Below, piece after piece: positions 43,134-60,684 of a DNA stretch of 64,000 nucleotides. Source of the DNA: Azorhizobium caulinodans ORS 571. GTDB lineage: Bacteria > Pseudomonadota > Alphaproteobacteria > Rhizobiales > Xanthobacteraceae. Numbering within the stretch: the first letter of the stretch is position 1; each line of letters opens with the position of its first letter. The DNA lies in assembly GCF_000010525.1 (NCBI RefSeq), contig NC_009937.1:4593501-4657500 (forward strand). Reading direction: 5' to 3'. The position numbers and the translations under genes are program-made. Below the pieces are notes generated by a model. The model was not told the origin of the DNA and made no database searches. It worked only from the letters and a program-made list of their open reading frames with translations.

Positions 43134-44912
43134 ATGACCGACGCCGCAGATCCGATCTCAGGTCGAGGACCCGAAGCCCCCCCGAAACGGGGGCTCGGGA
43201 TTCTTGCGACCCTCCGGCGTGTGCGCCGGTTCGTGGTCTTCAAGAGCTTCTCCAGCCTGACCAAGCGTATCGTCCTGCTCAATCTGGCGGGTCTTTGCGC
43301 GCTCGTCTCCGGCATCCTCTATCTGTCCGAATTCCGCGCCGGCCTCATCGATGCCCGCGTGCAGAGCCTGCTGGTGCAGGGCGAGATCATCGCCGGCGCC
43401 ATCGCCGCCTCGGCGCAGGTCGAGACCAACGCCATCACCATCGATCCCGAGCGCCTTCTGGAGCTTCAGGCCGGCGAGAGCTACGGCCCCTCGGAAGAAG
43501 GCTTCGCGCCGCTGGAATTCCCCATCAATCCCGAGCGCGTCGCCCCGGTGCTGCGCCGTCTCGTAGGCCCGACCCGCACCCGTGCCCGCATCTACGACCG
43601 GGACGGGATCATGCTGCTGGATTCCCGCTCGCTCTATTCCAAGGGCGAGATCCTGCGCTTTGATCTGCCCCCGCCCACCCAGCCGCCGCCCGGCCTGCTG
43701 GAACGGGCGTGGCGCGGCGCGCAATCCTGGCTCGGCCGGGGCGACCTGCCCCTCTACAAGGAACTCGGCCCCCAGAGCGGCAAGGAGTATCCCGAAGTCG
43801 CTTCCGCCGCCCTCGGCCAGAAGGCCAGCGCCGTCCGGGTGGATGATCGCGGCCGCGTGGTCGTCTCCGTGGCGGTGCCGATCCAGCGCTTCCGCGCCAT
43901 TCTGGGGGTGCTGCTGCTCTCCACCCAGGGCGGCGAGATCGACGAGGCGGTGGAGGCCGAGCGCTTCGTCATCGTGCGCGTCTTCCTCGTCGCCGCCGCC
44001 GTCATGGTTCTGCTGTCGATCCTGCTCGCCGGTACCATCGCCGATCCGGTGCGCAAGCTGGCCGACGCCGCCGAGCGGGTGCGCCGGCGCATCAAGACGC
44101 GCGTGGAAATCCCCGACTTCACCAGCCGCGCCGACGAGATCGGCCATTTGTCCGGCGCCCTGCGTGACATGACCAGTTCGCTCTACAACCGCATCGAGGC
44201 CATCGAGAGCTTCGCGGCGGACGTGGCGCATGAATTGAAGAACCCCCTCACCTCCCTGCGCTCGGCTGTGGAGACCCTGCCGCTCGCCAAGAGCGACGCC
44301 TCCCGCGGCCGCCTGCTGGAGGTGATCCAGCACGACGTGAAGCGGCTCGACCGCCTGATCTCGGACATTTCCGACGCGAGCCGCCTCGATGCCGAGCTTC
44401 AGCGGCAGGAGGCCGCCAGTGTCGATCTCAAGCAGTTGCTGGAGATGGTGGTGGGCATGGCGCAGGACGTGCGCAAGGATGACGGCGTGAGCGTTGCCCT
44501 CGCCTTTGAACGCCTGCCCGGCGCGCCGGCCGATTTCACCATCGCCGGCCATGCCTCGCGGCTGGGTCAGGTGGTGGACAATCTCGTCTCCAACGCCCGC
44601 TCCTTCTCGCCCGAAGGCGGCACGGTGAAGGTGCTCTGCCGCCGCACCAAGACCGGCGCGGAGATCATCGTGGACGACGAGGGCCCCGGTATCCGACCCG
44701 ATGCCCTCTCGCGTATCTTCGAGCGCTTCTATACGGACCGCCCGCACCAGGGCTTCGGCCAGAACTCCGGCCTCGGCCTCTCGATCTCCAAGCAGATCGT
44801 GGAAGCCCACGCCGGCCACATCTGGGCCGAGAACCGCACGCAGGCCGGCGCGCCGGGCGAGGAGCCTCAGGTGCTTGGCGCCCGCTTCATCGTCCGCCTG
44901 CCCAACGGCTGA
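43134..44912 (+). CDS. chvG: Sensor histidine kinase ChvG
   Basis: The 592-residue kinase has a basic cytoplasmic N-terminus, a first membrane helix (~residues 45-65), a large periplasmic domain (~66-275) and a second helix (~280-302). HAMP (~303-355), HisKA with phospho-acceptor H366 in FAADVAHELKNPLTSL, and an HATPase with DDEGPGIRPDALSRIFERFY and NSGLGLSISKQIVEAH complete it. The periplasmic domain is where ExoR binds in Sinorhizobium. It is co-transcribed with chvI and ends 4 bp before hprK. Confidence 0.95.
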   Translation: MTDAADPISGRGPEAPPKRGLGILATLRRVRRFVVFKSFSSLTKRIVLLNLAGLCALVSGILYLSEFRAGLIDARVQSLLVQGEIIAGAIAASAQVETNAITIDPERLLELQAGESYGPSEEGFAPLEFPINPERVAPVLRRLVGPTRTRARIYDRDGIMLLDSRSLYSKGEILRFDLPPPTQPPPGLLERAWRGAQSWLGRGDLPLYKELGPQSGKEYPEVASAALGQKASAVRVDDRGRVVVSVAVPIQRFRAILGVLLLSTQGGEIDEAVEAERFVIVRVFLVAAAVMVLLSILLAGTIADPVRKLADAAERVRRRIKTRVEIPDFTSRADEIGHLSGALRDMTSSLYNRIEAIESFAADVAHELKNPLTSLRSAVETLPLAKSDASRGRLLEVIQHDVKRLDRLISDISDASRLDAELQRQEAASVDLKQLLEMVVGMAQDVRKDDGVSVALAFERLPGAPADFTIAGHASRLGQVVDNLVSNARSFSPEGGTVKVLCRRTKTGAEIIVDDEGPGIRPDALSRIFERFYTDRPHQGFGQNSGLGLSISKQIVEAHAGHIWAENRTQAGAPGEEPQVLGARFIVRLPNG

Positions 44913-48134: not shown

Positions 48135-48211
48135 GCGCCCGTAGCTCAGCTGGATAGAGCACCAGACTACGAATCTGGGGGTCAGAGGTTCGAATCCTTT
48201 CGGGCGCGCCA
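48135..48211 (+). tRNA. tRNA-Arg(ACG)
   Basis: A 77-nt cloverleaf is formed: 7-bp acceptor stem GCGCCCG/CGGGCGC, D arm GCTC-AGCTGGATAGA-GC, anticodon stem CCAGA/TCTGG with loop CTACGAA (anticodon ACG), a GGGTC variable loop and a T arm with TTCGAAT. The 3' CCA is encoded in the DNA after the discriminator G. ACG would be read as ICG after deamination by TadA, decoding CGU/CGC/CGA arginine codons. Confidence 0.97.
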
Positions 48212-49642: not shown

Positions 49643-50683
49643 TCACCCCTCCGCGAAGGCGTCGACCCAGCCGTCGATGAGGCGGCAGCCGAAGAGGAAT
49701 TCGGAGGTGAGGTGCGTGCGCACGAGCGGCGTCAGCGTCCAGCCGTCGGTGAGGGCGGCGGCTTCCGCCCGGCGGGCGGCGATGGCCTCCTCCGCCGTCA
49801 CGGCGGCAAAGCGGAAGGTGGCGCCGGGACGCAGTTGGGCGATGCGGCCGAGGTCGGCACCGATGACGTTCGCGATCTTGGGATAGCCGCCGGTGGGCTG
49901 GCGGTCACCCATCAGCACCACGGGAAAGCCCTCCCCCGGCACCTGAATGGCGCCATGGGCGATGCCATCGGAAACGATGTTGAACCCGCCCGCATGGGTG
50001 AGCGGCGTGCCATCCAGGAAATAGGCCATGCGGTCCGAGCGCACGGACACCGTCCAAGGGCCAGCAAGGAAGGCGGCGATCTCGGCGGCGTTGAAATAAT
50101 CGTCCTGCGGGCCGAGCATCACGCGGATCACGTCGCCGGGGCGGTTCAGCACGGGCGCGGCCAGTTCCATGGTGCCGCCCGGTAGCACATGCGCGCCGGC
50201 CAATGGTAGCATGTCGCCCGCCATCAGGGCGCGGCCCTTGAGGCCGCCCAGCCCCGAGCGGGCGTGGGTGGAGAGCGAGCCGAGCGTCGGGGGAATACCG
50301 ATGGCGCCGCAGGGCGCGAGGTAGCACCAGGCGCCCGCGGTGCCCGCGCGCACGGCGAGCTTCTGGCCCACCTCCAGCGTCAGGCGGCACGCCGACGGGA
50401 CAGGCTGGCCGTCCAGCGTGATCCTGAAGGCGCCGCCAACCAGCGCGACGGTGACGGGCGCCTCCACGGCCTCCAGCTCGACCCCGCCCATGGAGATTTC
50501 CAGAGCGGCAGCACCTTCCGGCACCTGTGCCACGCGATTGGCGAGGGCGAAGGCGAGCGGGTCCATCGGGCCCGCGCCGGTCACGCCAAAGCGCAGCAGG
50601 CCGTGCCGGCCGGCATCCTGAAGGGTGACGCCGGGGCCGGCGGAGAGAATGCGCAGGCCCGGCTGCGCGACCGTCTCGCTCAT
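49643..50683 (-). CDS. pxpC: 5-oxoprolinase subunit C (PxpC/KipA)
   Basis: The 346-residue protein is the biotin-dependent-carboxyltransferase-like subunit of the ATP-dependent 5-oxoprolinase. Typical blocks are LQDAGRHGLLRFGVTGAGPMDPLAFALAN (~residues 20-48), LMGDRQPTGGYPKIANVIGADLGR and the central VRSDRMAYFLDG. With PxpA and PxpB it converts 5-oxo-L-proline plus ATP to L-glutamate. It overlaps pxpB by 4 bp (ATGA) and is the last gene of the pxpABC set. It should not be taken for a urea carboxylase, which is much larger. Confidence 0.94.
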   Translation of the reverse strand: MSETVAQPGLRILSAGPGVTLQDAGRHGLLRFGVTGAGPMDPLAFALANRVAQVPEGAAALEISMGGVELEAVEAPVTVALVGGAFRITLDGQPVPSACRLTLEVGQKLAVRAGTAGAWCYLAPCGAIGIPPTLGSLSTHARSGLGGLKGRALMAGDMLPLAGAHVLPGGTMELAAPVLNRPGDVIRVMLGPQDDYFNAAEIAAFLAGPWTVSVRSDRMAYFLDGTPLTHAGGFNIVSDGIAHGAIQVPGEGFPVVLMGDRQPTGGYPKIANVIGADLGRIAQLRPGATFRFAAVTAEEAIAARRAEAAALTDGWTLTPLVRTHLTSEFLFGCRLIDGWVDAFAEG

Positions 50684-51420
50684 GAGCGGATCTCCCGGCG
50701 CGCGACCACCTCGCCCGACGCGGCGCGCGCATCGAGGGCGAGGAAGGTGTCGCGATCCACCGGCTCGAATTTCAGTTCATCACCCACGGCGACGAGGAAG
50801 GCCGGGTTGCGCTCGGCCGCGAACATGCGCTCGGGCGTGCGCCCCATCAGCCACCAGCCGGTGGGCATGGAGAAGGTGGTGACGATGGCGAGGCCGCCGC
50901 CGATCAGCGTCGTGTTCGGCGGATGCGGCGGACGCGGGCGGGTGCGGCGGGAAACCGCGAGTTCCTTCGGCAGCCCGCCGAGATAGCAGAAGCCGGGGGC
51001 GAAGCCGTACATATAGACGCGGAAAACGGCGCCGGCGTGCAGCGCGACCACCTTCTCCTCGGACAGGCCGGTCATGCGCGAGACCTCGCCGATGTCCTCG
51101 CCATATTCCGGATCGTAGCAGCAGGGCAGCACCCAGCGCGTCACGGGGCCGGACGCCGCCCGCGGCGCATTGACCATGGCCTCGATCTCGCCGACCAGCG
51201 TCGCGCGGGAGATGACCAGCGGATCGTAATGCACCATCAGCGAGCGATAGGTGGGCACGCTCTCGCGCACGCCGGGCAGCGCCCGCGCCACAAGCGCGGC
51301 GTCGAGTGCCAGCACGCGGTCGCTGATCTCCGGCTCAACCGCCCGTCCGAACTCCACCACCAGCGCCGTCTCGCCGCTGTCGAGGAAGCGCGGCGCGGCG
51401 TAGACCTCCCCCTCGATCAT
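50680..51420 (-). CDS. pxpB: 5-oxoprolinase subunit B (PxpB/KipI)
   Basis: From the ATG ending at 51420 the product is 246 residues. PxpB features include the FLDSGETALVVEFG N-terminal strand, the conserved VYMYGFAPGFCYLGGLP (near residue 140) and the later IGGGLAIVTTFSMPTGWWLMGRTPERMF. It forms a complex with PxpC and binds ATP. Both ends overlap neighbours by 4 bp (ATGA with pxpA upstream and pxpC downstream), so the three subunits are translationally coupled. The frame is open further upstream through pxpA, but that part is alternate-frame translation. Confidence 0.94.
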   Translation of the reverse strand: MIEGEVYAAPRFLDSGETALVVEFGRAVEPEISDRVLALDAALVARALPGVRESVPTYRSLMVHYDPLVISRATLVGEIEAMVNAPRAASGPVTRWVLPCCYDPEYGEDIGEVSRMTGLSEEKVVALHAGAVFRVYMYGFAPGFCYLGGLPKELAVSRRTRPRPPHPPNTTLIGGGLAIVTTFSMPTGWWLMGRTPERMFAAERNPAFLVAVGDELKFEPVDRDTFLALDARAASGEVVARREIRS

Positions 51421-52178
51421 GGCGCGAAGGGCGCGATGGCGATGCCGGCCGCTTCCAGCCGCTCGCGCACATAGCGCGCGGTCTCGACCGCCTTCGGCCC
51501 GTCGCCATGGACGCAGATGGAATCGATGGACGTCGGCAGGTGCGTGCCCTGCGCGGTGATGACAGCCCCGGACTGCACCATGGCGATGATGCGGTCGGCC
51601 GCCGCCACGGGATCGTGGATCATGGCGCCGGGTTGGCTGCGCGGAATGAGATGACCCTGCTCCGTATAGCCGCGATCGGCGAATATCTCGGCGGCGAGGC
51701 GCAGGCCCGCGTCGCGGGTGGCGGGCGCCTGCGCGCCCAGCGGGCCGGCGAGGACCACGAGCGAGGGATCGACCGCCTTCACGGCATTGGCGACGGCAAC
51801 CGCCACCTCGGGCTCCTGCTCGGCAATGTTGCCCAGCGCCCCATGGACCTTCACATAGGTGATGCGATGGCCGGAATAGGTGGCGAGCGCCTGCGCCGCG
51901 CCCACCTGATAGGCCACCAGCCGCTCGATCTCGCCGGGCGTGAAGGGCATGCGGCGGCGGCCGAAGCCCCACAGATCCGGAAAGCCGGGATGCGCGCCCA
52001 CCGCCACGCCCCGCGACTTGGCGTAGGCAAACGCCTTGGCCATGATCTCCGGATCACCCGCATGCAGGCCGCAGGCAATGTTGGCCGAAGAGACGATGTC
52101 CATCAGGGCTTCGTCTTCCGTGAGGTGCCAGATGCCGAAGCCTTCGGCGAGATCGGAATTCAGGTCAACGGACGGCAT
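51417..52178 (-). CDS. pxpA: 5-oxoprolinase subunit A (PxpA, LamB/YcsF family)
   Basis: The 253-residue protein is a TIM-barrel-like LamB/YcsF enzyme that acts on 5-oxoproline after activation by PxpBC. Signatures are VDLNSDLAEGFGIW, SSANIACGLHAGDPEIM (~residues 30-47), VGAHPGFPDLWGFGRRRM and YVKVHGALGN. Length is normal. It is 93 bp downstream of livF, with a terminator-like hairpin between, so pxpABC may be partly uncoupled from the transporter genes. The presence of the complete A-B-C set predicts a functional ATP-dependent 5-oxoprolinase. Confidence 0.95.
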   Translation of the reverse strand: MPSVDLNSDLAEGFGIWHLTEDEALMDIVSSANIACGLHAGDPEIMAKAFAYAKSRGVAVGAHPGFPDLWGFGRRRMPFTPGEIERLVAYQVGAAQALATYSGHRITYVKVHGALGNIAEQEPEVAVAVANAVKAVDPSLVVLAGPLGAQAPATRDAGLRLAAEIFADRGYTEQGHLIPRSQPGAMIHDPVAAADRIIAMVQSGAVITAQGTHLPTSIDSICVHGDGPKAVETARYVRERLEAAGIAIAPFAP

Positions 52179-52234
52179 GGGCTCGATCCAGTCTTCAGGC
52201 GGCGCCAGCGAACCGGGCCACCCCTGTCCAGGCG

Positions 52235-52264
52235 AAAACAGAAGCCCGCGCCAGCGGCGCGGGC
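52235..52264 (-). terminator. Terminator-like hairpin between livF and pxpA
   Basis: A perfect 9-bp stem (52244-52252 / 52256-52264) with a 3-base loop begins 8 bp after the livF stop on the minus strand and is followed by TTCTGTTTTCG. It probably gives partial termination between the transporter and the oxoprolinase genes. Confidence 0.65.
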
Positions 52265-52271
52265 GGAGGCC

Positions 52272-52968
<697 letters not shown>

Positions 52969-52976
<8 letters not shown>

Positions 52977-53700
52977 GGTGGCGGTCCCCCAGATAGGCGC
53001 TGATGACGCGCTCGTCGCGGACCACGTCCGCAGGCTTGCCTTCCGCCAGCACGGCCCCGAGGTTCAGCACCACGGCGCGATCCACCAGCGGCATGACGAT
53101 CTCCATCACGTGCTCCACCATGAGCACGGCGACGCCCTTCGCCCGCACGGCCCGCACGAGCTCGACGCCCGCCCGCGCCTCGGAGGGCGTGAGGCCGGTC
53201 ATCACCTCGTCGAGCAGCAGGAGCTTGGGCTCGGTGGCGAGCGCCCGCGCGACTTCCAGGCGCCGCTTTTCCGGCGGCGTCAGCTCGTTAGCGAACACTT
53301 CGGCGCGATGGCCAAGGCCGGCGAACTCCAGCACTTCCTCGGCCTTCTTGCGCGCCTCCTTGGTGGAGGAGGTGCGCACGAGGGCGCCGACGATGACATT
53401 GTCCGCCACCGTCATGCTGTCGAAGCTCTTCACCACCTGGAAGGTGCGGCCGATGCCACGGGCGCAGCGCTCCGGCGCCGAGAGGCGCGTCACGTCCTGA
53501 CCGTCGAACCAGACCGAGCCTTCGGTCGGGGGCCGAAGCCCCGCGATGACGTTGAACAGGGTGGACTTGCCGGCCCCGTTCGGGCCGATGAGGCCGACGA
53601 TCTCGCCGGCGGCCACCTGAAGATTGACATCGCTGTTGGCGACGAGGCCGCCGAAACGCTGCCAGACGTTGCGCACATCGAGAAGGGGCGAGGCACTCAT
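52969..53700 (-). CDS. Branched-chain-type ABC transporter ATPase (LivG-like)
   Basis: From the ATG ending at 53700 the product is 243 residues. Walker A is GPNGAGKST (~residues 40-48), the Q-loop region is IGRTFQVVKSFDSMTVADN, the signature region is ELTPPEKRRLEVARALA (note LTPPE in place of the usual LSGG/LPYG) and Walker B is LLLLDEVMTGL with TPSEA. It partners the LivF-like ATPase. The start overlaps the livM stop as ATGA. The altered signature motif is common in LivG and does not imply inactivity. Confidence 0.92.
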
Positions 53701-54680
53701 GCTGCGCTCCTCTTGCGGCGCTGGAACAGGCCCACGAGACCGTCGGGACGGGCCAGCGCAATGGCCATGATCAGGCAGCCGTAGACGATGAGGTCGATGC
53801 CCTTGCCCGAGCCGCCCATGTAGGTGCGGGTGAGTTCGGTGAGCGGGATGAGGATGGCGGCGCCGAGCACCGGCCCCCACAGCGTTCCGATGCCGCCGAG
53901 CACGGCCGGGAGGGCCATGAGCAGCGAGAATTGGAAGGTCATCACCGATTCCGGGTCGATGTAGCCGAGGAACTGGGCGTAGAAGCTGCCGCCCACCGCC
54001 GTGAAGAAGGCGGAAACCGCCGCGGCCATCATCTTGGAGTTGAACACCACGACGCCAAGGCTCTCGGCGGCTTCCGGATTGTCCTTCACCGCACGCCACC
54101 AGTAGCCCCACTTGGAATTCTCAATCTTCCAGGTGACGAGCCACACCACGGCCGCGAAGACGAGAACGAAGTAGAAGTAGGGAAGCTTGTCGCGGGCGAA
54201 CTGGAAGGTCAGCCAGCTGTCGCGGCCGATGGGCAGCTCGATGCCGGTGGCCGCGCCTGCCCAGTCCCAGTTGTGGAACAGCAGCAGGCCGATCTCCGCG
54301 ATCACGATGGTCGCGATGACGTAATAGTGGCCGGCGAGGCGGAAGCACGCATGGCCGATGCCCATGGCGATCAGCGCCGCGATGACACCGCCGAGCGCCA
54401 TGCCGAACCAGGGCAGCACGCCGAACTTGGTGTAGAGCAGCGTCGAGGTGTAGGCCCCGATGCCGAAGTAGAGGGCATGGCCCAGCGAGAGCTGCCCGCA
54501 ATAGCCGCCGAGGATGTTCCAGCTCTGCGAAAGGCCGGCATACAGCAGCAACAGGATGAGGACGTTCAGCGTATAGACGTCCTTCACTCCGAAGGGCAGC
54601 AGGGCGACCAGCGCGAAGATCACCAGGGCGAGTAGGAGCTGGCGCGTGCGCCGCGCCGTGAAGGAGGGTGCGGCGCTCAT
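53697..54680 (-). CDS. Branched-chain-type ABC transporter permease (LivM-like)
   Basis: This 327-residue permease has about nine membrane helices. Family segments are GLSQSWNILGGYCGQLSLGHALYFGIGAY (~residues 48-76) and SLGVVVFNSKMMAAAVSAFFTAVGGSFYAQFLGYIDPES, the docking region of LivM. It forms the channel with the LivH-like subunit. It shares one base with the livH stop and 4 bp with livG, so the cluster is densely coupled. Confidence 0.93.
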   Translation of the reverse strand: MSAAPSFTARRTRQLLLALVIFALVALLPFGVKDVYTLNVLILLLLYAGLSQSWNILGGYCGQLSLGHALYFGIGAYTSTLLYTKFGVLPWFGMALGGVIAALIAMGIGHACFRLAGHYYVIATIVIAEIGLLLFHNWDWAGAATGIELPIGRDSWLTFQFARDKLPYFYFVLVFAAVVWLVTWKIENSKWGYWWRAVKDNPEAAESLGVVVFNSKMMAAAVSAFFTAVGGSFYAQFLGYIDPESVMTFQFSLLMALPAVLGGIGTLWGPVLGAAILIPLTELTRTYMGGSGKGIDLIVYGCLIMAIALARPDGLVGLFQRRKRSAA

Positions 54681-55558
54681 CAGATGCTCCCGAACAGGCC
54701 GCGCGGGCGGAAGAACACCACCAGCAGGTAGACCACGTAGATGCCCACCGACTTCAGCGAAGGCGGCAGCACCATCGCCGTCATGGCCTCCACGAGGCCG
54801 ACCACGATGCCGCCGGCAAAGGCGCCGAACACCGAGCCGAAGCCGCCGAGCGCCACCGTGACGTAGGCGATGAGCGCGAAGGAAGCACCCACATCCGGAT
54901 AGACGTAGAAGAAGCTCGCCATGATGGCACCGGCGAGACCCACCAGCGCCGCGCCGAGGCCCCAGCCGAGGGCGAACACCTTGTTCTTGTCGATGCCCAC
55001 CAGCGCCACCGCGCCGGCGTCCTCACGGGTGGCTTCCAGCGCCTTGCCGAAGTCCGTCTTCTTGATGAGGAAAAACAGGCCGACGAAGGCGAGGATGGAG
55101 ACCGCGCCGCCCGCCAGCTGCGGCGCCGGCAGGAAGATGCCGAACACCGAAACGGTCTTGCCGCCAAGCCAGGTGTGGGGAATGGAGCGGTAGTCCGGCG
55201 TGAACAGCAGCTGGGCGAGACCGCGCATCACCACGGCAAGGCCGAAGGTGGCGAAGATCTGCACCATGCCCACGTTGGTCTTCGCCCGCATCGCGAAACG
55301 GATGATGGCGAGATAGACGAAGGCACCGAACCCGAACAGCACCGCCGCCGCGATGGGGGCGGAAAGCAGCGGATCGAGGGCGAACCAGCTGAAACAGAAG
55401 AAGGTGATGTACATGGCGAACATCAGGAATTCGCCATGTGCAAAGTTGGTCACGTCCATCAGGCCGAAGATGAGCGCCAGCCCGACGGCGATGAGGCCGT
55501 AGAGCAAGCCCATGAGCAGGCCGCTGGCCAGGCTCTGGATAACGATTGCGGCTGTCAT
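54680..55558 (-). CDS. Branched-chain-type ABC transporter permease (LivH-like)
   Basis: The 292-residue permease has about eight helices. It starts with IQSLASGLLMGLLYGLIAVGLALIFGLMDVTNFAHGEFLMFAMY, the LivH signature, and has the cytoplasmic loop KTDFGKALEATREDAGAVALVGID. The gene follows the binding-protein gene by 31 bp on the same strand. Confidence 0.93.
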   Translation of the reverse strand: MTAAIVIQSLASGLLMGLLYGLIAVGLALIFGLMDVTNFAHGEFLMFAMYITFFCFSWFALDPLLSAPIAAAVLFGFGAFVYLAIIRFAMRAKTNVGMVQIFATFGLAVVMRGLAQLLFTPDYRSIPHTWLGGKTVSVFGIFLPAPQLAGGAVSILAFVGLFFLIKKTDFGKALEATREDAGAVALVGIDKNKVFALGWGLGAALVGLAGAIMASFFYVYPDVGASFALIAYVTVALGGFGSVFGAFAGGIVVGLVEAMTAMVLPPSLKSVGIYVVYLLVVFFRPRGLFGSI

Positions 55559-55589
55559 GTTCCTGCTCCACGCACCTCCTTTCGAGAGA

Positions 55590-56855
55590 TCAGCTCTTGT
55601 TCATCGGCCACACGGCTTCGGCGATGGCCGCCTGAGCCGGGAAGACGGTGACGAACTTGTTGCCGATGCGCTGGAGCAGGACGGGGTCCGCATAGGGGTT
55701 CTGTCCGGTCTCGTCGAACTTCACCTTGGACCACGGCATGATGGTCTTCTCGCCCGGCAGGTCGGTGGCGACGAGCGCGGCGCGGATGGCCTCGCCCTCC
55801 GTGGACTTGGCACGGTTGATGGCGTCGGCCAGCAGCAGCAGGGCCATGAATTCGCGCGAGGTGTTGTCGTTCAGGTCCTTGCCCGAAATCTTCTTGAAGG
55901 CGTCGTTCACCTTGCCGACCGACGGACGCTTGGCGGCGAGGTCGAGCGAGAAGCTGCCACGGGTCATGGAGCCTTCGGCCAGCGGGCCGACGGCGTCATA
56001 AAGGGCCTGCTCGGAGAAGCCGGCCGCCTGCGCGAGCAGCGCCTTGGGCTTGTAGCCCAGCTCGTTCATGGTCTTGAGCAGAAGGATGCCGTCGGTGGTG
56101 TAGCTGGACGGCAGGAGCACGTCCGCATTCGCCGCCTTGAGCTGCTGCACCTCGGCGGTGAGCGAGGGCGAGTTGGCGCGGTACTTGATGTCGGCGACGA
56201 CGTTATAGCCGCGCTCCTTGGCGAGCTTCAGCTGCGCGTTGGCGCTGTCCGTGCCGAAGATGGTGTCCTCGTGGAACAGGGCGACCGTCTCGACCTTCTG
56301 GCCCTTCTTCTTCAGGCTGTCGAGGAAGTCGAACATGGCCGCCGAGAACATCTCGTCGTGGGCGGCGGCGCGGAAGAAGAACTTCAGGTTACGGCGGGTC
56401 AGGCTCGGCGAGGAGTTGTCAGCCGAGAAGAAGGGAACGCCGTAGCGCTCGCAGGACTGGCTGACGGTCGCCGCCACCGCGCTCTGGTAGGTGCCGACGA
56501 TGGCGCACACCTTCTCCTGCGTGATGAGGCGCTCGGCCTCGGCGCGGCCCTTCTGGGGGTCGCCCTGATGGTCGGCATAGACGATGCGCACCTTGGCGCC
56601 GCCGAGGTTCGGCAGGCCGCCGGCACCCGCGAGCGGCAGATCCGCGTCGGAATTCTCGTTGATGAACATCAGCGCGGTCTCGAACGCCTTCTGGGCGTCG
56701 ACACCCATCTGCGCGGCCGCACCCGACATGGGATAGAGCGCGCCGATGACCACTTCCTTGGTCTGGGCACTGGCTTTGCCCGCCGCCCCGGCGCCCAAAG
56801 CGAGCGTCGCGGCGGTGCCGACGAGAAGATTGCGACGATTGATCGTGAACGACAT
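55590..56855 (-). CDS. Periplasmic substrate-binding protein of the Liv-type ABC transporter
   Basis: From the ATG ending at 56855 the precursor is 421 residues. The leader contains a twin-arginine motif (INRRNLLVG) followed by a hydrophobic stretch and an A-x-A site (GKASA), so export by the Tat route is likely. The mature protein is a type I periplasmic fold: VVIGALYPMSGAAAQMGVDAQKAFETAL, DHQGDPQKGRAEAERLI, GTYQSAVAATVSQSCERYGVPF and FFRAAAHDEMF. Ligand unknown; the operon points to 5-oxoproline, D-glutamate or a peptide-derived compound. Confidence 0.92.
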   Translation of the reverse strand: MSFTINRRNLLVGTAATLALGAGAAGKASAQTKEVVIGALYPMSGAAAQMGVDAQKAFETALMFINENSDADLPLAGAGGLPNLGGAKVRIVYADHQGDPQKGRAEAERLITQEKVCAIVGTYQSAVAATVSQSCERYGVPFFSADNSSPSLTRRNLKFFFRAAAHDEMFSAAMFDFLDSLKKKGQKVETVALFHEDTIFGTDSANAQLKLAKERGYNVVADIKYRANSPSLTAEVQQLKAANADVLLPSSYTTDGILLLKTMNELGYKPKALLAQAAGFSEQALYDAVGPLAEGSMTRGSFSLDLAAKRPSVGKVNDAFKKISGKDLNDNTSREFMALLLLADAINRAKSTEGEAIRAALVATDLPGEKTIMPWSKVKFDETGQNPYADPVLLQRIGNKFVTVFPAQAAIAEAVWPMNKS

Positions 56856-56946
56856 ATCAGGGATCCCTCTGCTGAATGCCCCGGTCACGCTCTACGGCGT
56901 TTGCTTCCGCGGGGGTAGTGTCGATTTGGAAAGGTTGTGCCGGCGC

Positions 56947-57765
56947 TCAGCCGGTTGCGAGCGCACTGTTCTTGAGATCGGTGCACAGCATCATGCCGGG
57001 CCCGTGGGCCAGGGCGTATTCGATCTTGGCGGCCGAGATGACCGACTGGGGCGTGACACCGCAGGCCCAGAACACCGGGATCTCGCCTTCGAGGATCTCC
57101 ACCGCATCGCCATAGTCGGGCTTGGAGAGATCCTTGATGCCGATGGCTTCCGGCAGGCCGATGTGGATCGGCGCGCCATGGACCGAGGGGAAGCGCGAGG
57201 TGATCTGCACCGCGCGGATCGCATTGGCGGGCGTCATGGGCCGCATGGACACGACCATGGGGCCGGCGAAGGGGCCGGCCGGCACGCAGGCGATGTTGGT
57301 GCGGAACATCGGCACCTTCACGCCCTTCTCCACATGGCGCAGCGGAATGTCCGCCGCCATGAGCGCCTCCTCGAAGGAGAGCGAGCAGCCGATGGCGAAG
57401 GTCACGAGATCCTCGCGCCAGTAGGCCTTGAGATCCGCCGGCTCGTCCACGAGCACGCCGTCCTTGTAGACGCAGTAGCCGGGCACGTCGGTGCGGATGT
57501 CGAGATCGAGGCCGATGGAGCTCAGCGTCGGATCACCAGGCTCGGACACGCCGATCACCGGGCAGGGCTTGGGGTTGCGCTGGCAGAAGCGCAGGAAGTC
57601 GAAGGCGAGCTTCGCGGGCAGGATGGCGAGGTTCGCCTGCACGAAGCCGGGGGCGAAACCCGCGGTCGAGCCGGTGAGCGCGCCGCTGCGGCTCGCAAGG
57701 CGCACGTCGCGGCCGGTGGCCAGGGAAATACCGCCGGGAGTGGCAATGGAGGCATGCGCGGTCAT
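56947..57765 (-). CDS. DUF1445 protein (YcsI/UPF0317, D-glutamate cyclase family)
   Basis: The 272-residue protein belongs to the UPF0317/DUF1445 family, often called putative hydro-lyase. Conserved blocks are [15 protein letters not shown] (residues ~37-51), the [14 protein letters not shown] motif with its Cys-Ser and the [24 protein letters not shown] segment (~155-178). The same domain forms the N-terminal part of mammalian D-glutamate cyclase, which makes 5-oxo-D-proline from D-glutamate, and in Bacillus ycsI lies in the ycsF-kipI-kipA operon. It is the first gene of this minus-strand series, so its linkage to pxpABC supports a D-glutamate/5-oxoproline role. Confidence 0.9.
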
Positions 57766-57900
57766 CGGAAAACCTGCTCATTGGTTGCGCATGCCCATAT
57801 CATCACCACGAATCCATTGTGTCGAATTTTAATTTCGGATCGTTTTGGATAAACTGGCCTTATCGATGCGTCAGGCATCCGGCCCCGGCGGAGGGTGGTG

Positions 57901-58791
57901 ATGGACCTCAAAGCCTTGGAAACATTCGTGCGGGTGGCGGAACTGGGGAGTTTTCGCGCCGCAGCGAACAAGTTGCACACCACCCAGCCCGCCATCTCCC
58001 AGCGCATCGCTCAACTGGAGAGCGAACTGGGCGCCCGGTTGCTCGAGCGTGAACGCCGCAACGTCACGCCCACCCCTCGCGGCCGCACCCTGCTGGCCTA
58101 TGCGGAAAAGATGCTCGCCTTGCGTGCGGAGATGCTGACCGTGTTCAGCGACTCAACGAGCTTGCGCGGCGTCATGCGCATCGGGCTTGCGGAGACCATC
58201 GTCCACACGTGGCTGACGCGCTTCCTCAAGCAGGTGAACGCCATCCATCCCCATCTGGGGCTCGAGATCGAGGTCGACATCTCGCCGAACCTGCGCGACC
58301 GGCTCGCGGCGCAGGAACTCGACGTGGTCTTCATGCTCGGCCCCAGCCACCTGCCGCTGATGGAGAACCGGCTGCTCTGCTCCTATCCGGTCTCCTTCGT
58401 CGCCAGCCCGGAGATCAGCTGGAGCCAGAAACCGGTGACGCTGGAGGAGCTGGCGACCTTCCCGATCATCACCTTCTCCCGCAACACACAACCCTACATG
58501 GCGGTGCGCACCCTGTTCTCGCGCCACGACTTGCCGCCGGTGCGCCTGCACGCCAGCGCCTCGCTCTCCACCGTCGTGCATATGGCGACCGAGGGCCTTG
58601 GCATCGCGGTCATTCCCGCCGCCATCGTCTCGGGCGAGCTGGCGAGCGGCCGCCTCGCCGTCATCGAGACCAACACGCACATTCCCGATCTGCCCTTCTA
58701 TGCGGCCTGGACCTCCACGCCGGACAGCAGCGCCGCCCGGCAGATCGTCGAGATCGCCGCCGTCATCGCCCAGGAACGCGGCGGCATGTGA
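57901..58791 (+). CDS. LysR-family transcriptional regulator
   Basis: The 296-residue regulator has an N-terminal winged helix-turn-helix (LETFVRVAELGSFRAAANKLHTTQPAISQRIAQLE, residues ~6-40) and a co-inducer-binding domain of standard length. It is divergent from the DUF1445/Liv/pxp series with a 135-bp shared promoter region, the usual LysR arrangement for its target operon. An inverted repeat CGAA-N7-TTCG is visible at 57823-57837. It is the probable activator of the transporter/oxoprolinase genes. An upstream GTG (57895) is an alternative start. Confidence 0.92.
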   Translation: MDLKALETFVRVAELGSFRAAANKLHTTQPAISQRIAQLESELGARLLERERRNVTPTPRGRTLLAYAEKMLALRAEMLTVFSDSTSLRGVMRIGLAETIVHTWLTRFLKQVNAIHPHLGLEIEVDISPNLRDRLAAQELDVVFMLGPSHLPLMENRLLCSYPVSFVASPEISWSQKPVTLEELATFPIITFSRNTQPYMAVRTLFSRHDLPPVRLHASASLSTVVHMATEGLGIAVIPAAIVSGELASGRLAVIETNTHIPDLPFYAAWTSTPDSSAARQIVEIAAVIAQERGGM

Positions 58792-58866: not shown

Positions 58867-60684
58867 ATGAATGCGCCTTATGCCCCGCCCGCCGAAGTCG
58901 CTCCCGCCAAACGATCGCTCCACGGCACACCCGCTCCGCAGTCGGACGACGGCGCTCTCGGCCTCGAGGGCTTCCGCGCCTTCGACCGGATGACGCAGGC
59001 CCTCACCGCCCGCTTCACCGGCGGACTTTCGCCCGCCGCCATGGCGCTGGCCTGGACCGACTGGTCCATCCACCTCGCGGCGGCTCCCGGCAAGCGGGCC
59101 GAGCTGATGCTGAAGGCCTGGCGCAAATATTCCCGCCTCGCGGGCTACATGGCGCGGGCGAGCCGCGATCCCGCGACGCCGCCGGTGATCGAGCCGCTGC
59201 CGGGCGACGACCGCTTCGCCTCCGAGGCTTGGCAGAAATGGCCTTACAGCCTCTATGCCCAGAGCTTCCTGATGATCCAGCAGTGGTGGCACAATGCCAC
59301 CCATGAGGTGCCCGGCACCTCCCGCCACACGCAGGACGTCACCTCCTTCCTGGTGCGGCAGATGCTGGACATGGCCTCGCCCTCCAACCTGCCGCTGACC
59401 AATCCCGACGTGCTCGCGCGCGCCCATGCGGAAGGGGGCGCCAATTTCCTGCGCGGCTTCCAGAACTGGCTGGAGGACGTGGGCGCGGCACTCTCCGACG
59501 AGCCGCCGGCCGGAACCGAGAAGTTCCGCCCCGGCGTCGAGGTGGCCGTCACCCCCGGACAGGTGGTCTATCGCAACCACCTCATCGAACTGATCCAGTA
59601 CGCGCCGACGACCCCGGACGTCTATGCCGAGCCGGTCCTGCTCGTGCCGGCCTGGATCATGAAGTACTACATCCTCGACCTGTCGCCGCAGAACTCGCTG
59701 ATCCGCTACCTCGTCTCGCAGGGACACACGGTCTTCTGCATCTCCTGGCGCAACGTCACCGCCGAGGACCGGTACGTCTCCTTCGACGACTACCGTCGTC
59801 AGGGCGTGCTCGATGCGCTGGATGCCATCTCGACCATCGTGCCCGGCACGCGCGTTCACGGCACCGGCTACTGCCTCGGCGGCACGCTGCTGGCGATCGC
59901 CGCGGCGGCCATGGGCCGGGCGGGCGACCAGCGGCTCGCGAGCCTCAGCCTGTTCGCGGCCCAGACGGATTTCACCGAGCCGGGCGAACTGCAGCTCTTC
60001 ATCGACGACAGCGAGCTGCACTTCCTCGAAAGCATGATGTGGGACCAGGGCTTCCTGTCCGCCGAACAGATGGCGGGGGCCTTCCAGATGCTGCGCTCCA
60101 ACGATCTCGTCTGGTCGCACATGATCAAGGACTATCTGCTGGGCGAGCGCACGCCCATGATCGACCTCATGGCCTGGAATGCGGATTCCACCCGCATGCC
60201 CTATCGCATGCACAGCCAGTATCTGCGCGAGCTGTTCCTCGACAACGCCCTGGCCAGCGGCCACTACATCGTGGACGGCCATCCGGCGGCCTTGCCCAAC
60301 ATCCGGCAATCCATCTTCGCGGTGGGGACGGAACGGGACCATGTGGCCCCCTGGCATTCCGTATACAAGCTGCACCACCTCACGGATACGGACGTCACTT
60401 TCGTGCTGACTTCCGGCGGGCACAATGCCGGCATCGTCTCGGAGCCGGGCCATCCGCACCGGCATTATCGCGTGCGGCGAAAGGCGGCTGCGGATGCCTA
60501 CATCAGTCCGGACGAATGGGTGGCGGGGAGCGACCTGAAGCCCGGCTCCTGGTGGCCGGAATGGAGCGAATGGCTGGCCGCGCACTCCTCGCCCGGCCGC
60601 GTGCTGCCGCCCCCGATGGGTGCGCCCCAAGCGGGCCTGCACCCGCTCTGCCCGGCGCCGGGAACGTATGTCCACCAACGGTGA
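58867..60684 (+). CDS. phaC: Class I polyhydroxyalkanoate synthase
   Basis: The 605-residue protein fits PhaC. An N-terminal domain (to ~residue 220) contains SLYAQSFLMIQQWWHN. The alpha/beta-hydrolase domain has the lipase-like box GYCLGG with catalytic C336, and the other triad residues D491 (ERDHVAPW) and H519 (SGGHNAGIVSEPG). It polymerises hydroxyacyl-CoA to storage granules. No phaA, phaB or phaR is next to it. RBS GAGAGG precedes the ATG. Confidence 0.94.
   Translation: MNAPYAPPAEVAPAKRSLHGTPAPQSDDGALGLEGFRAFDRMTQALTARFTGGLSPAAMALAWTDWSIHLAAAPGKRAELMLKAWRKYSRLAGYMARASRDPATPPVIEPLPGDDRFASEAWQKWPYSLYAQSFLMIQQWWHNATHEVPGTSRHTQDVTSFLVRQMLDMASPSNLPLTNPDVLARAHAEGGANFLRGFQNWLEDVGAALSDEPPAGTEKFRPGVEVAVTPGQVVYRNHLIELIQYAPTTPDVYAEPVLLVPAWIMKYYILDLSPQNSLIRYLVSQGHTVFCISWRNVTAEDRYVSFDDYRRQGVLDALDAISTIVPGTRVHGTGYCLGGTLLAIAAAAMGRAGDQRLASLSLFAAQTDFTEPGELQLFIDDSELHFLESMMWDQGFLSAEQMAGAFQMLRSNDLVWSHMIKDYLLGERTPMIDLMAWNADSTRMPYRMHSQYLRELFLDNALASGHYIVDGHPAALPNIRQSIFAVGTERDHVAPWHSVYKLHHLTDTDVTFVLTSGGHNAGIVSEPGHPHRHYRVRRKAAADAYISPDEWVAGSDLKPGSWWPEWSEWLAAHSSPGRVLPPPMGAPQAGLHPLCPAPGTYVHQR

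What the first reader, a model, noticed from the sequence alone, without database searches (positions are those of the whole stretch)
49643..58791. Candidate D-glutamate / 5-oxoproline uptake and conversion island with a Liv-type importer
One strand encodes a DUF1445 protein, a type-I binding protein, LivH, LivM, LivG, LivF, PxpA, PxpB and PxpC, with a divergent LysR regulator. The DUF1445 domain is part of mammalian D-glutamate cyclase (D-Glu to 5-oxo-D-proline), and Bacillus ycsI lies with ycsF-kipI-kipA, so the enzyme set is a known type. What differs here is the transporter (five-component ABC with a Tat-exported binding protein instead of an NRAMP-like carrier) and the regulator (LysR instead of IclR/KipR). 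I infer a pathway: import, cyclisation or opening, release of glutamate.
Basis: partly seen in the sequence, partly recalled or inferred. Interest (0 to 1): 0.72.

Follow-up and report, generated by a model that had tools for sequence, protein, structure and literature searches.

The report
Pyroglutamate uptake and conversion operon
A soil bacterium carries one compact gene cluster that most likely pulls pyroglutamate (5-oxoproline, a cyclic by-product of glutamate) into the cell and turns it into glutamate, and it puts an enzyme family of unsettled function (DUF1445) in a setting where that function can be tested.

The parts
57895..58791 (+). LysR-family regulator, divergent from the operon
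   Evidence: Pfam LysR_substrate and HTH_1; present in 79 of 80 named homologous loci
57848..57864 (.). Predicted LysR binding site, palindrome GATAA-N7-TTATC (contains a T-N11-A box)
   Evidence: Sole exact occurrence in the 5.37 Mb genome; looser form in 83 of 87 homologous upstream regions against 4 of 1740 shuffles
56947..57765 (-). DUF1445 / 'D-Glu_cyclase' protein (UPF0317); activity unknown
   Evidence: PF07286 221 bits; solved relatives 3db9 and 2pif; only DUF1445 in this genome
55590..56855 (-). Binding protein of SAR11_0655 type, predicted ligand L-pyroglutamate; twin-arginine N terminus
54680..55558 (-). LivH-type permease
   Evidence: PF02653
53697..54680 (-). LivM-type permease
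   Evidence: PF02653
52969..53700 (-). LivG-type ATPase
   Evidence: PF00005 and PF12399
52272..52976 (-). LivF-type ATPase
   Evidence: PF00005 and PF12399
51417..52178 (-). PxpA (LamB/YcsF), the only copy in the genome
   Evidence: PF03746 308.9 bits; sole match in the genome
50680..51420 (-). PxpB
   Evidence: PF02682 207.3 bits; under the NCBIfam equivalog cut-off
49643..50683 (-). PxpC
   Evidence: PF02626 275.9 bits; under the NCBIfam PxpC equivalog cut-off

Best explanation
It is a dedicated 5-oxoproline (pyroglutamate) utilisation operon. The exported binding protein captures 5-oxo-L-proline, LivHMGF imports it at the cost of ATP, and PxpABC opens the ring with ATP to give L-glutamate. 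The divergent LysR protein controls the operon through the GATAA-N7-TTATC palindrome, presumably sensing 5-oxoproline. DUF1445 is an accessory enzyme of the same substrate pool, most likely acting on 5-oxoproline or glutamate of the D series so that it can enter the L pathway. Shown here: genes, conservation, site, nearest ligand-bound structure. Inferred: the ligand of this protein, operon activity, the LysR effector, and the DUF1445 reaction (the least certain step).
Against: PxpB and PxpC fall below curated equivalog cut-offs. The binding protein shares only 44% identity with SAR11_0655. No curated model names the single-chain enzyme a 5-oxoprolinase; it scores under the caprolactamase cut-offs (354 v 1000 bits). 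Most Bradyrhizobium and Rhodopseudomonas loci have no oxoprolinase nearby and instead an M20 hydrolase, a D-2-hydroxyacid dehydrogenase and threonate-type genes, though 11 of 11 genomes searched whose importer stands without an oxoprolinase or is of a genus or kind where it does so have PxpA elsewhere (neighbourhoods of 5 of these 11 were not fetched). Of 50 DUF1445 places in the class, only 11 have PxpABC or the single-chain enzyme within 9 kb. No binding or growth data for this organism turned up in what I read.
Confidence: 0.78

Rival explanations
1. One reading: the importer brings in D-glutamate (or 5-oxo-D-proline), and DUF1445 is a D-glutamate cyclase feeding PxpABC.
For: Pfam names PF07286 D-Glu_cyclase; a two-domain mouse protein with DUF1445 converts D-glutamate to 5-oxo-D-proline (PMC5339696, passages). 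The other half, DUF4392, lies beside a second copy of this binding protein in A. oxalatiphilum.
Against: The solved relative holds L-pyroglutamate. The mouse authors linked DUF4392, not DUF1445, to amino-acid chemistry in the passages I saw, and DUF4392 is missing from this genome and from 18 of 19 genomes with the importer. Ring closure is favoured for L-glutamate (Keq about 0.035, PMC13274462 introduction), so a cyclase would work against an ATP-driven opening step unless the D series is handled apart.
Confidence: 0.1
2. The substrate is a different lactam, ureide or hydroxy acid; 5-oxoproline is only the ligand in SAR11, and PxpABC in Azorhizobium is a paralogue for another ring.
For: Bradyrhizobium-type loci carry an M20 hydrolase, a D-2-hydroxyacid dehydrogenase and OtnK/OtnI/LtnD genes; PxpB and PxpC under cut-offs; a Roseomonas locus has HyuA and HyuB and no DUF1445, and their best curated matches are caprolactamase subunits, under cut-off; the SAR11 row differs at 9 of 21 group positions.
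Against: The PxpA is the only one in the genome; an independent lineage links the pyroglutamate-bound protein to PxpABC; the SAR11 row shares 12 of the 21 group positions.
Confidence: 0.13
3. A branched-chain amino-acid importer that merely lies next to pxpABC.
For: LivHMGF families and annotation.
Confidence: 0.03

Closest known systems
SAR11_0655 (PDB 8wch), Liv-type binding protein with L-pyroglutamate
   Different: Here one compact operon with a divergent LysR and a twin-arginine N terminus; the SAR11-like locus has mixed gene directions and no LysR match nearby
pxpTABC-PxpR of Corynebacterium glutamicum (PMC13274462: abstract, introduction and discussion read)
   Same: Dedicated uptake plus PxpABC plus local regulator for 5-oxo-L-proline
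   Different: NRAMP-like secondary carrier and GntR repressor there; ABC importer, LysR and DUF1445 here
ycsF-ycsG-ycsI-kipI-kipA-kipR of Bacillus subtilis (PMC10448178, passages)
   Same: PxpABC with a DUF1445 gene (ycsI)
   Different: YcsG is an NRAMP-family Mn2+ importer there (renamed MntG), regulator KipR; here Liv ABC and LysR
TRAP-type 5-oxoproline uptake, Bordetella DctP6/DctP7 (as told in the discussion of PMC13274462)
   Same: Binding protein for 5-oxoproline near an oxoprolinase; DUF1445 often sits with TRAP genes (24 of 50 places)
   Different: Different transporter class and binding-protein family
Mammalian D-glutamate cyclase (DUF1445 + DUF4392)
   Same: Shares the DUF1445 domain
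   Different: No DUF4392 in the protein or genome

Membership tests
Prokaryotic 5-oxoprolinase PxpABC | Three subunits (LamB/YcsF, CT_C_D, CT_A_B) encoded together | tested here: met
   adjacent, overlapping by 4 bases
Prokaryotic 5-oxoprolinase PxpABC | Each subunit over the curated NCBIfam cut-off | tested here: not met
   PxpA over a subfamily cut-off (353.3 v 226); PxpB 130.6 v 145.55 and PxpC 219.8 v 500 under theirs; PxpC passes the broader TIGR00724 (244.7 v 230.2). So I file it as PxpABC-like by layout and context, not as a curated equivalog
Prokaryotic 5-oxoprolinase PxpABC | ATP-dependent opening of 5-oxoproline | not testable with these tools
   Needs an enzyme assay
SAR11_0655-type pyroglutamate binding proteins | Closest solved structure by sequence and fold | tested here: met
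SAR11_0655-type pyroglutamate binding proteins | One well-supported clade with the other linked proteins | tested here: inconclusive
   15 rows with the window 100/99; joined to the SAR11 row at only 87/70; the Azospirillum pair branches elsewhere at 88/82
SAR11_0655-type pyroglutamate binding proteins | Binds L-pyroglutamate | not testable with these tools
   Known only for 8wch by its title
Liv/HAAT ABC importer | Periplasmic binding protein, two permeases, two ATPases | tested here: met
Mammalian-type D-glutamate cyclase | DUF1445 domain | tested here: met
   PF07286 221 bits
Mammalian-type D-glutamate cyclase | DUF4392 (GLUCM-like_C) domain | tested here: not met
   Not in the protein, not in the genome
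Bacillus-type pxp operon | NRAMP-like carrier and KipR-type regulator | tested here: not met
   The ten genes are Liv importer, Pxp, DUF1445 and LysR

The most novel reading that the evidence does not exclude
Bacterial DUF1445 is not a D-glutamate cyclase but a cofactor-free enzyme that inverts or otherwise rescues 5-oxo-D-proline (a 5-oxoproline racemase-like step), so that importers taking both hands of pyroglutamate can feed an L-specific oxoprolinase. It travels with whichever importer (Liv or TRAP) and whichever ring-opening enzyme (PxpABC or single-chain hydantoinase/oxoprolinase) a lineage uses. Conserved cysteines (C61, C68, C127, C235) and histidines in 50 sequences would allow this, but equally a metal site.
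Probability: 0.2. Interest if true: 0.7.

Novelty: new variant of a known kind. Interest (0 to 1): 0.48.

Why it matters
5-oxoproline forms spontaneously from glutamine and glutamate, yet few bacterial uptake systems are known; the 2026 study I read in part discusses NRAMP-like and TRAP types, and the term ABC does not occur in its text. This locus joins a pyroglutamate-type ABC importer to PxpABC and a regulator with a single exact site in the genome. It also places DUF1445, a family with solved structures for whose bacterial members I saw no assayed activity in the listings of three searches, next to ring-opening enzymes around two importer classes, which makes its function directly testable. 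Even if it proves ordinary, it argues against the 'branched-chain amino acid transporter' label on many rhizobial genes.

Tried and rejected
Branched-chain amino-acid importer: rejected on the fold match. PxpABC as part of the conserved core: rejected (2 of 80). The first structure model, from 9 close sequences, was poor (pLDDT 57.6) and was not used. TRAP binding proteins beside DUF1445 were compared with solved structures: for each of the two proteins tried (of 24 loci with TRAP) the only two hits were 2pfz and 4n4u, weak (57.1 and 55.4 bits; 45.8 and 47.0 bits); that 2pfz is the Bordetella pyroglutamate protein DctP6 is my recollection, so this is a hint only. The contrast of 11 of 50 DUF1445 loci against 0 of 26 control loci with PxpABC or the single-chain enzyme gives Fisher p 0.013 (the count of 27 controls was wrong by one and is superseded); with HyuAB added it is 16 of 50 against 2 of 26, p 0.023. 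A third control locus, L138, has a weak HyuA match (89 bits) at its edge. Control loci differ in length and genomes are related, so these are indicative. Paper searches for SAR11_0655, 8wch or a pyroglutamate ABC importer showed no paper on its ligand; one 2007 paper lists SAR11_0655 only as 'AA transport' (PMC2217521, passage). The terms '5-oxoproline racemase' and 'pyroglutamate racemase' had no occurrence in the 25 papers listed of 32. The likely source paper of 8wch (Clifton et al. 2024, seen only in a reference list) is not held; I read nothing of it, so it may already discuss gene context. No sigma-70 promoter was found. A terminator-like stem lies after LivF at 52264-52244, but it is one of 7 such sites where shuffles give 4.0 on average.

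Full report
What is there. The finding's ten genes are real. Reading frames and families were confirmed by ORF listing, Pfam and NCBIfam. The nine minus-strand genes run DUF1445, binding protein, LivH, LivM, LivG, LivF, PxpA, PxpB, PxpC with gaps of 91, 31, -1, -4, -8, 93, -4 and -4 bases and no internal stops. LysR is divergent, 129 bases from DUF1445. The genome is a single contig of 5,369,772 bases.

What travels with it. DUF1445 accompanies the binding protein in 80 of 80, LysR in 79 of 80, LivH and LivM in 80, LivG and LivF in 79 (one contig ends early); PxpABC in 2 of 80, both Azorhizobium. Further out the importer stands beside PxpABC (G584, G607, G101, an Azospirillum oryzae plasmid, the SAR11-like genome) or beside a single-chain hydantoinase/oxoprolinase of about 1,200 residues (Agrobacterium fabrum pAtl-11c, G198). 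That layout is that of eukaryote-type 5-oxoprolinase as I recall it; no curated model names its activity. On a Roseomonas plasmid the importer has separate HyuA and HyuB and no DUF1445. In Methylobacterium and Terrarubrum plasmids no oxoprolinase was found in the stretch. In the first set of relatives, 11 places had 65% identity or more; 10 have DUF1445 within 1.5 kb, and the 11th is the second A. oxalatiphilum copy treated below. Of 19 genomes with the importer (14 of one family), each has exactly one DUF1445 gene and 18 have PxpA, the exception being G198, whose single-chain enzyme lies beside the importer. None of 26 loci of more distant Liv binding proteins carries DUF1445 or PxpA or the single-chain enzyme; two carry HyuA and HyuB and one a weak HyuA match. 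A tree places the window among 15 linked proteins with full support (100/99); the SAR11 row joins them with weak support (87/70), and the Azospirillum pair sits elsewhere with 88/82, so one origin is not shown. Twenty-one positions were picked because they separate 19 linked from 13 unlinked proteins; at these the SAR11 row has the linked residue 12 times and differs 9 times.

DUF1445 more widely. In 212 genomes of the class, DUF1445 occurs in 45 and PxpA (over cut-off) in 48; both in 23 against 10.2 expected (odds ratio 5.9, p 1.5e-6; not corrected for relatedness). All 50 DUF1445 places were examined (stretches and the window; tally): a TRAP transporter lies within 6 kb in 24, this Liv importer in 4, another Liv set in 2 (one of them also with TRAP), none of these in 21. 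Within 9 kb lie PxpABC in 5, the single-chain enzyme in 6, HyuA/HyuB in 5 and DUF2848 in 7; LysR lies within 6 kb in 18. Several contigs end early, so these are lower bounds; 34 of 50 show no oxoprolinase-type neighbour. In a DUF1445 tree the Azospirillum/G101 pair groups with two TRAP-linked members (95/84), away from the main Liv-linked group (98/96), which suggests that the Liv importer met DUF1445 more than once or was exchanged.

What DUF1445 may do. The name D-glutamate cyclase comes from a mouse protein with two domains; in the passages I saw, its authors compare DUF4392 with a racemase and mention DUF1445 only as the other domain (PMC5339696). A DUF4392 protein was described as a Mn2+-dependent phosphatase (PMC5132392, passages). 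DUF4392 is absent here and in 17 further genomes of 19; the single match, in A. oxalatiphilum, lies directly upstream of a second copy of this binding protein (65% identity), after a LysR and a PLP-enzyme gene. So both halves of the vertebrate enzyme occur, apart, beside this binding protein: this supports a shared 5-oxoproline or glutamate theme, not a particular reaction. Four cysteines and four histidines are conserved in 41-48 of 50 sequences.

Regulation. The palindrome GATAA-N7-TTATC at 57848-57864 occurs once in the genome and in none of 100 shuffles of the window. A looser form is found upstream of DUF1445 in 83 of 87 homologous loci that have LysR (88 were given; one lacks LysR), against 4 of 1740 shuffles; L113 and L116 are among the 4 without it, and most of the 87 are closely related. 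It has the T-N11-A spacing known for LysR sites (recalled).

Limits. I found no experiment on this organism. PxpB and PxpC are below curated cut-offs. Bradyrhizobium-type loci carry an M20 hydrolase, a D-2-hydroxyacid dehydrogenase and threonate-type genes instead of an oxoprolinase, so the substrate range of the family may be wider than 5-oxoproline.

Verdict. Observation confirmed; interpretation right in outline, wrong in stressing D-glutamate. It is a new variant of known 5-oxoproline utilisation systems, with one open question of real interest: the reaction of DUF1445.

Noticed in passing
L132:5581-10607 (A. oxalatiphilum, G002:C1): A second copy of the binding protein (65% identical to the window's) follows LysR, a PLP-dependent enzyme and a stand-alone DUF4392 gene, with no LivHMGF beside it.
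   Followed up: partly
L036:4522-18884 and other Bradyrhizobium/Rhodopseudomonas loci: LysR is followed by an M20 hydrolase and a D-2-hydroxyacid dehydrogenase, and the Liv genes by LtnD, OtnI and OtnK homologues; each has a match in 64-74 of the 84 other loci compared.
   Followed up: partly
L182:5627-7243 and six other DUF1445 loci: DUF2848 (unknown function) lies near DUF1445 in 7 of 50 places, six of them with TRAP genes.
   Followed up: no
L115:14720-18944, L121:15127-17806: In Azospirillum and G101 a lone polar-amino-acid binding protein sits between DUF1445 and PxpB; in Azospirillum a chemoreceptor gene lies between PxpC and PxpA, perhaps for chemotaxis to the substrate.
   Followed up: no
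window 44200-44290: Rhodo-rpoB RNA family match just over its threshold (33.8 v 33.6 bits).
   Followed up: no
window 58867-60684: A polyhydroxyalkanoate synthase gene starts 75 bases after the LysR gene on the same strand.
   Followed up: no
window 52244-52264: Terminator-like stem (9 pairs) just after LivF and before PxpA; one of 7 such sites against 4.0 expected.
   Followed up: no
window 48135-48211: tRNA-Arg (acg) gene about 1.4 kb beyond the end of the operon.
   Followed up: no
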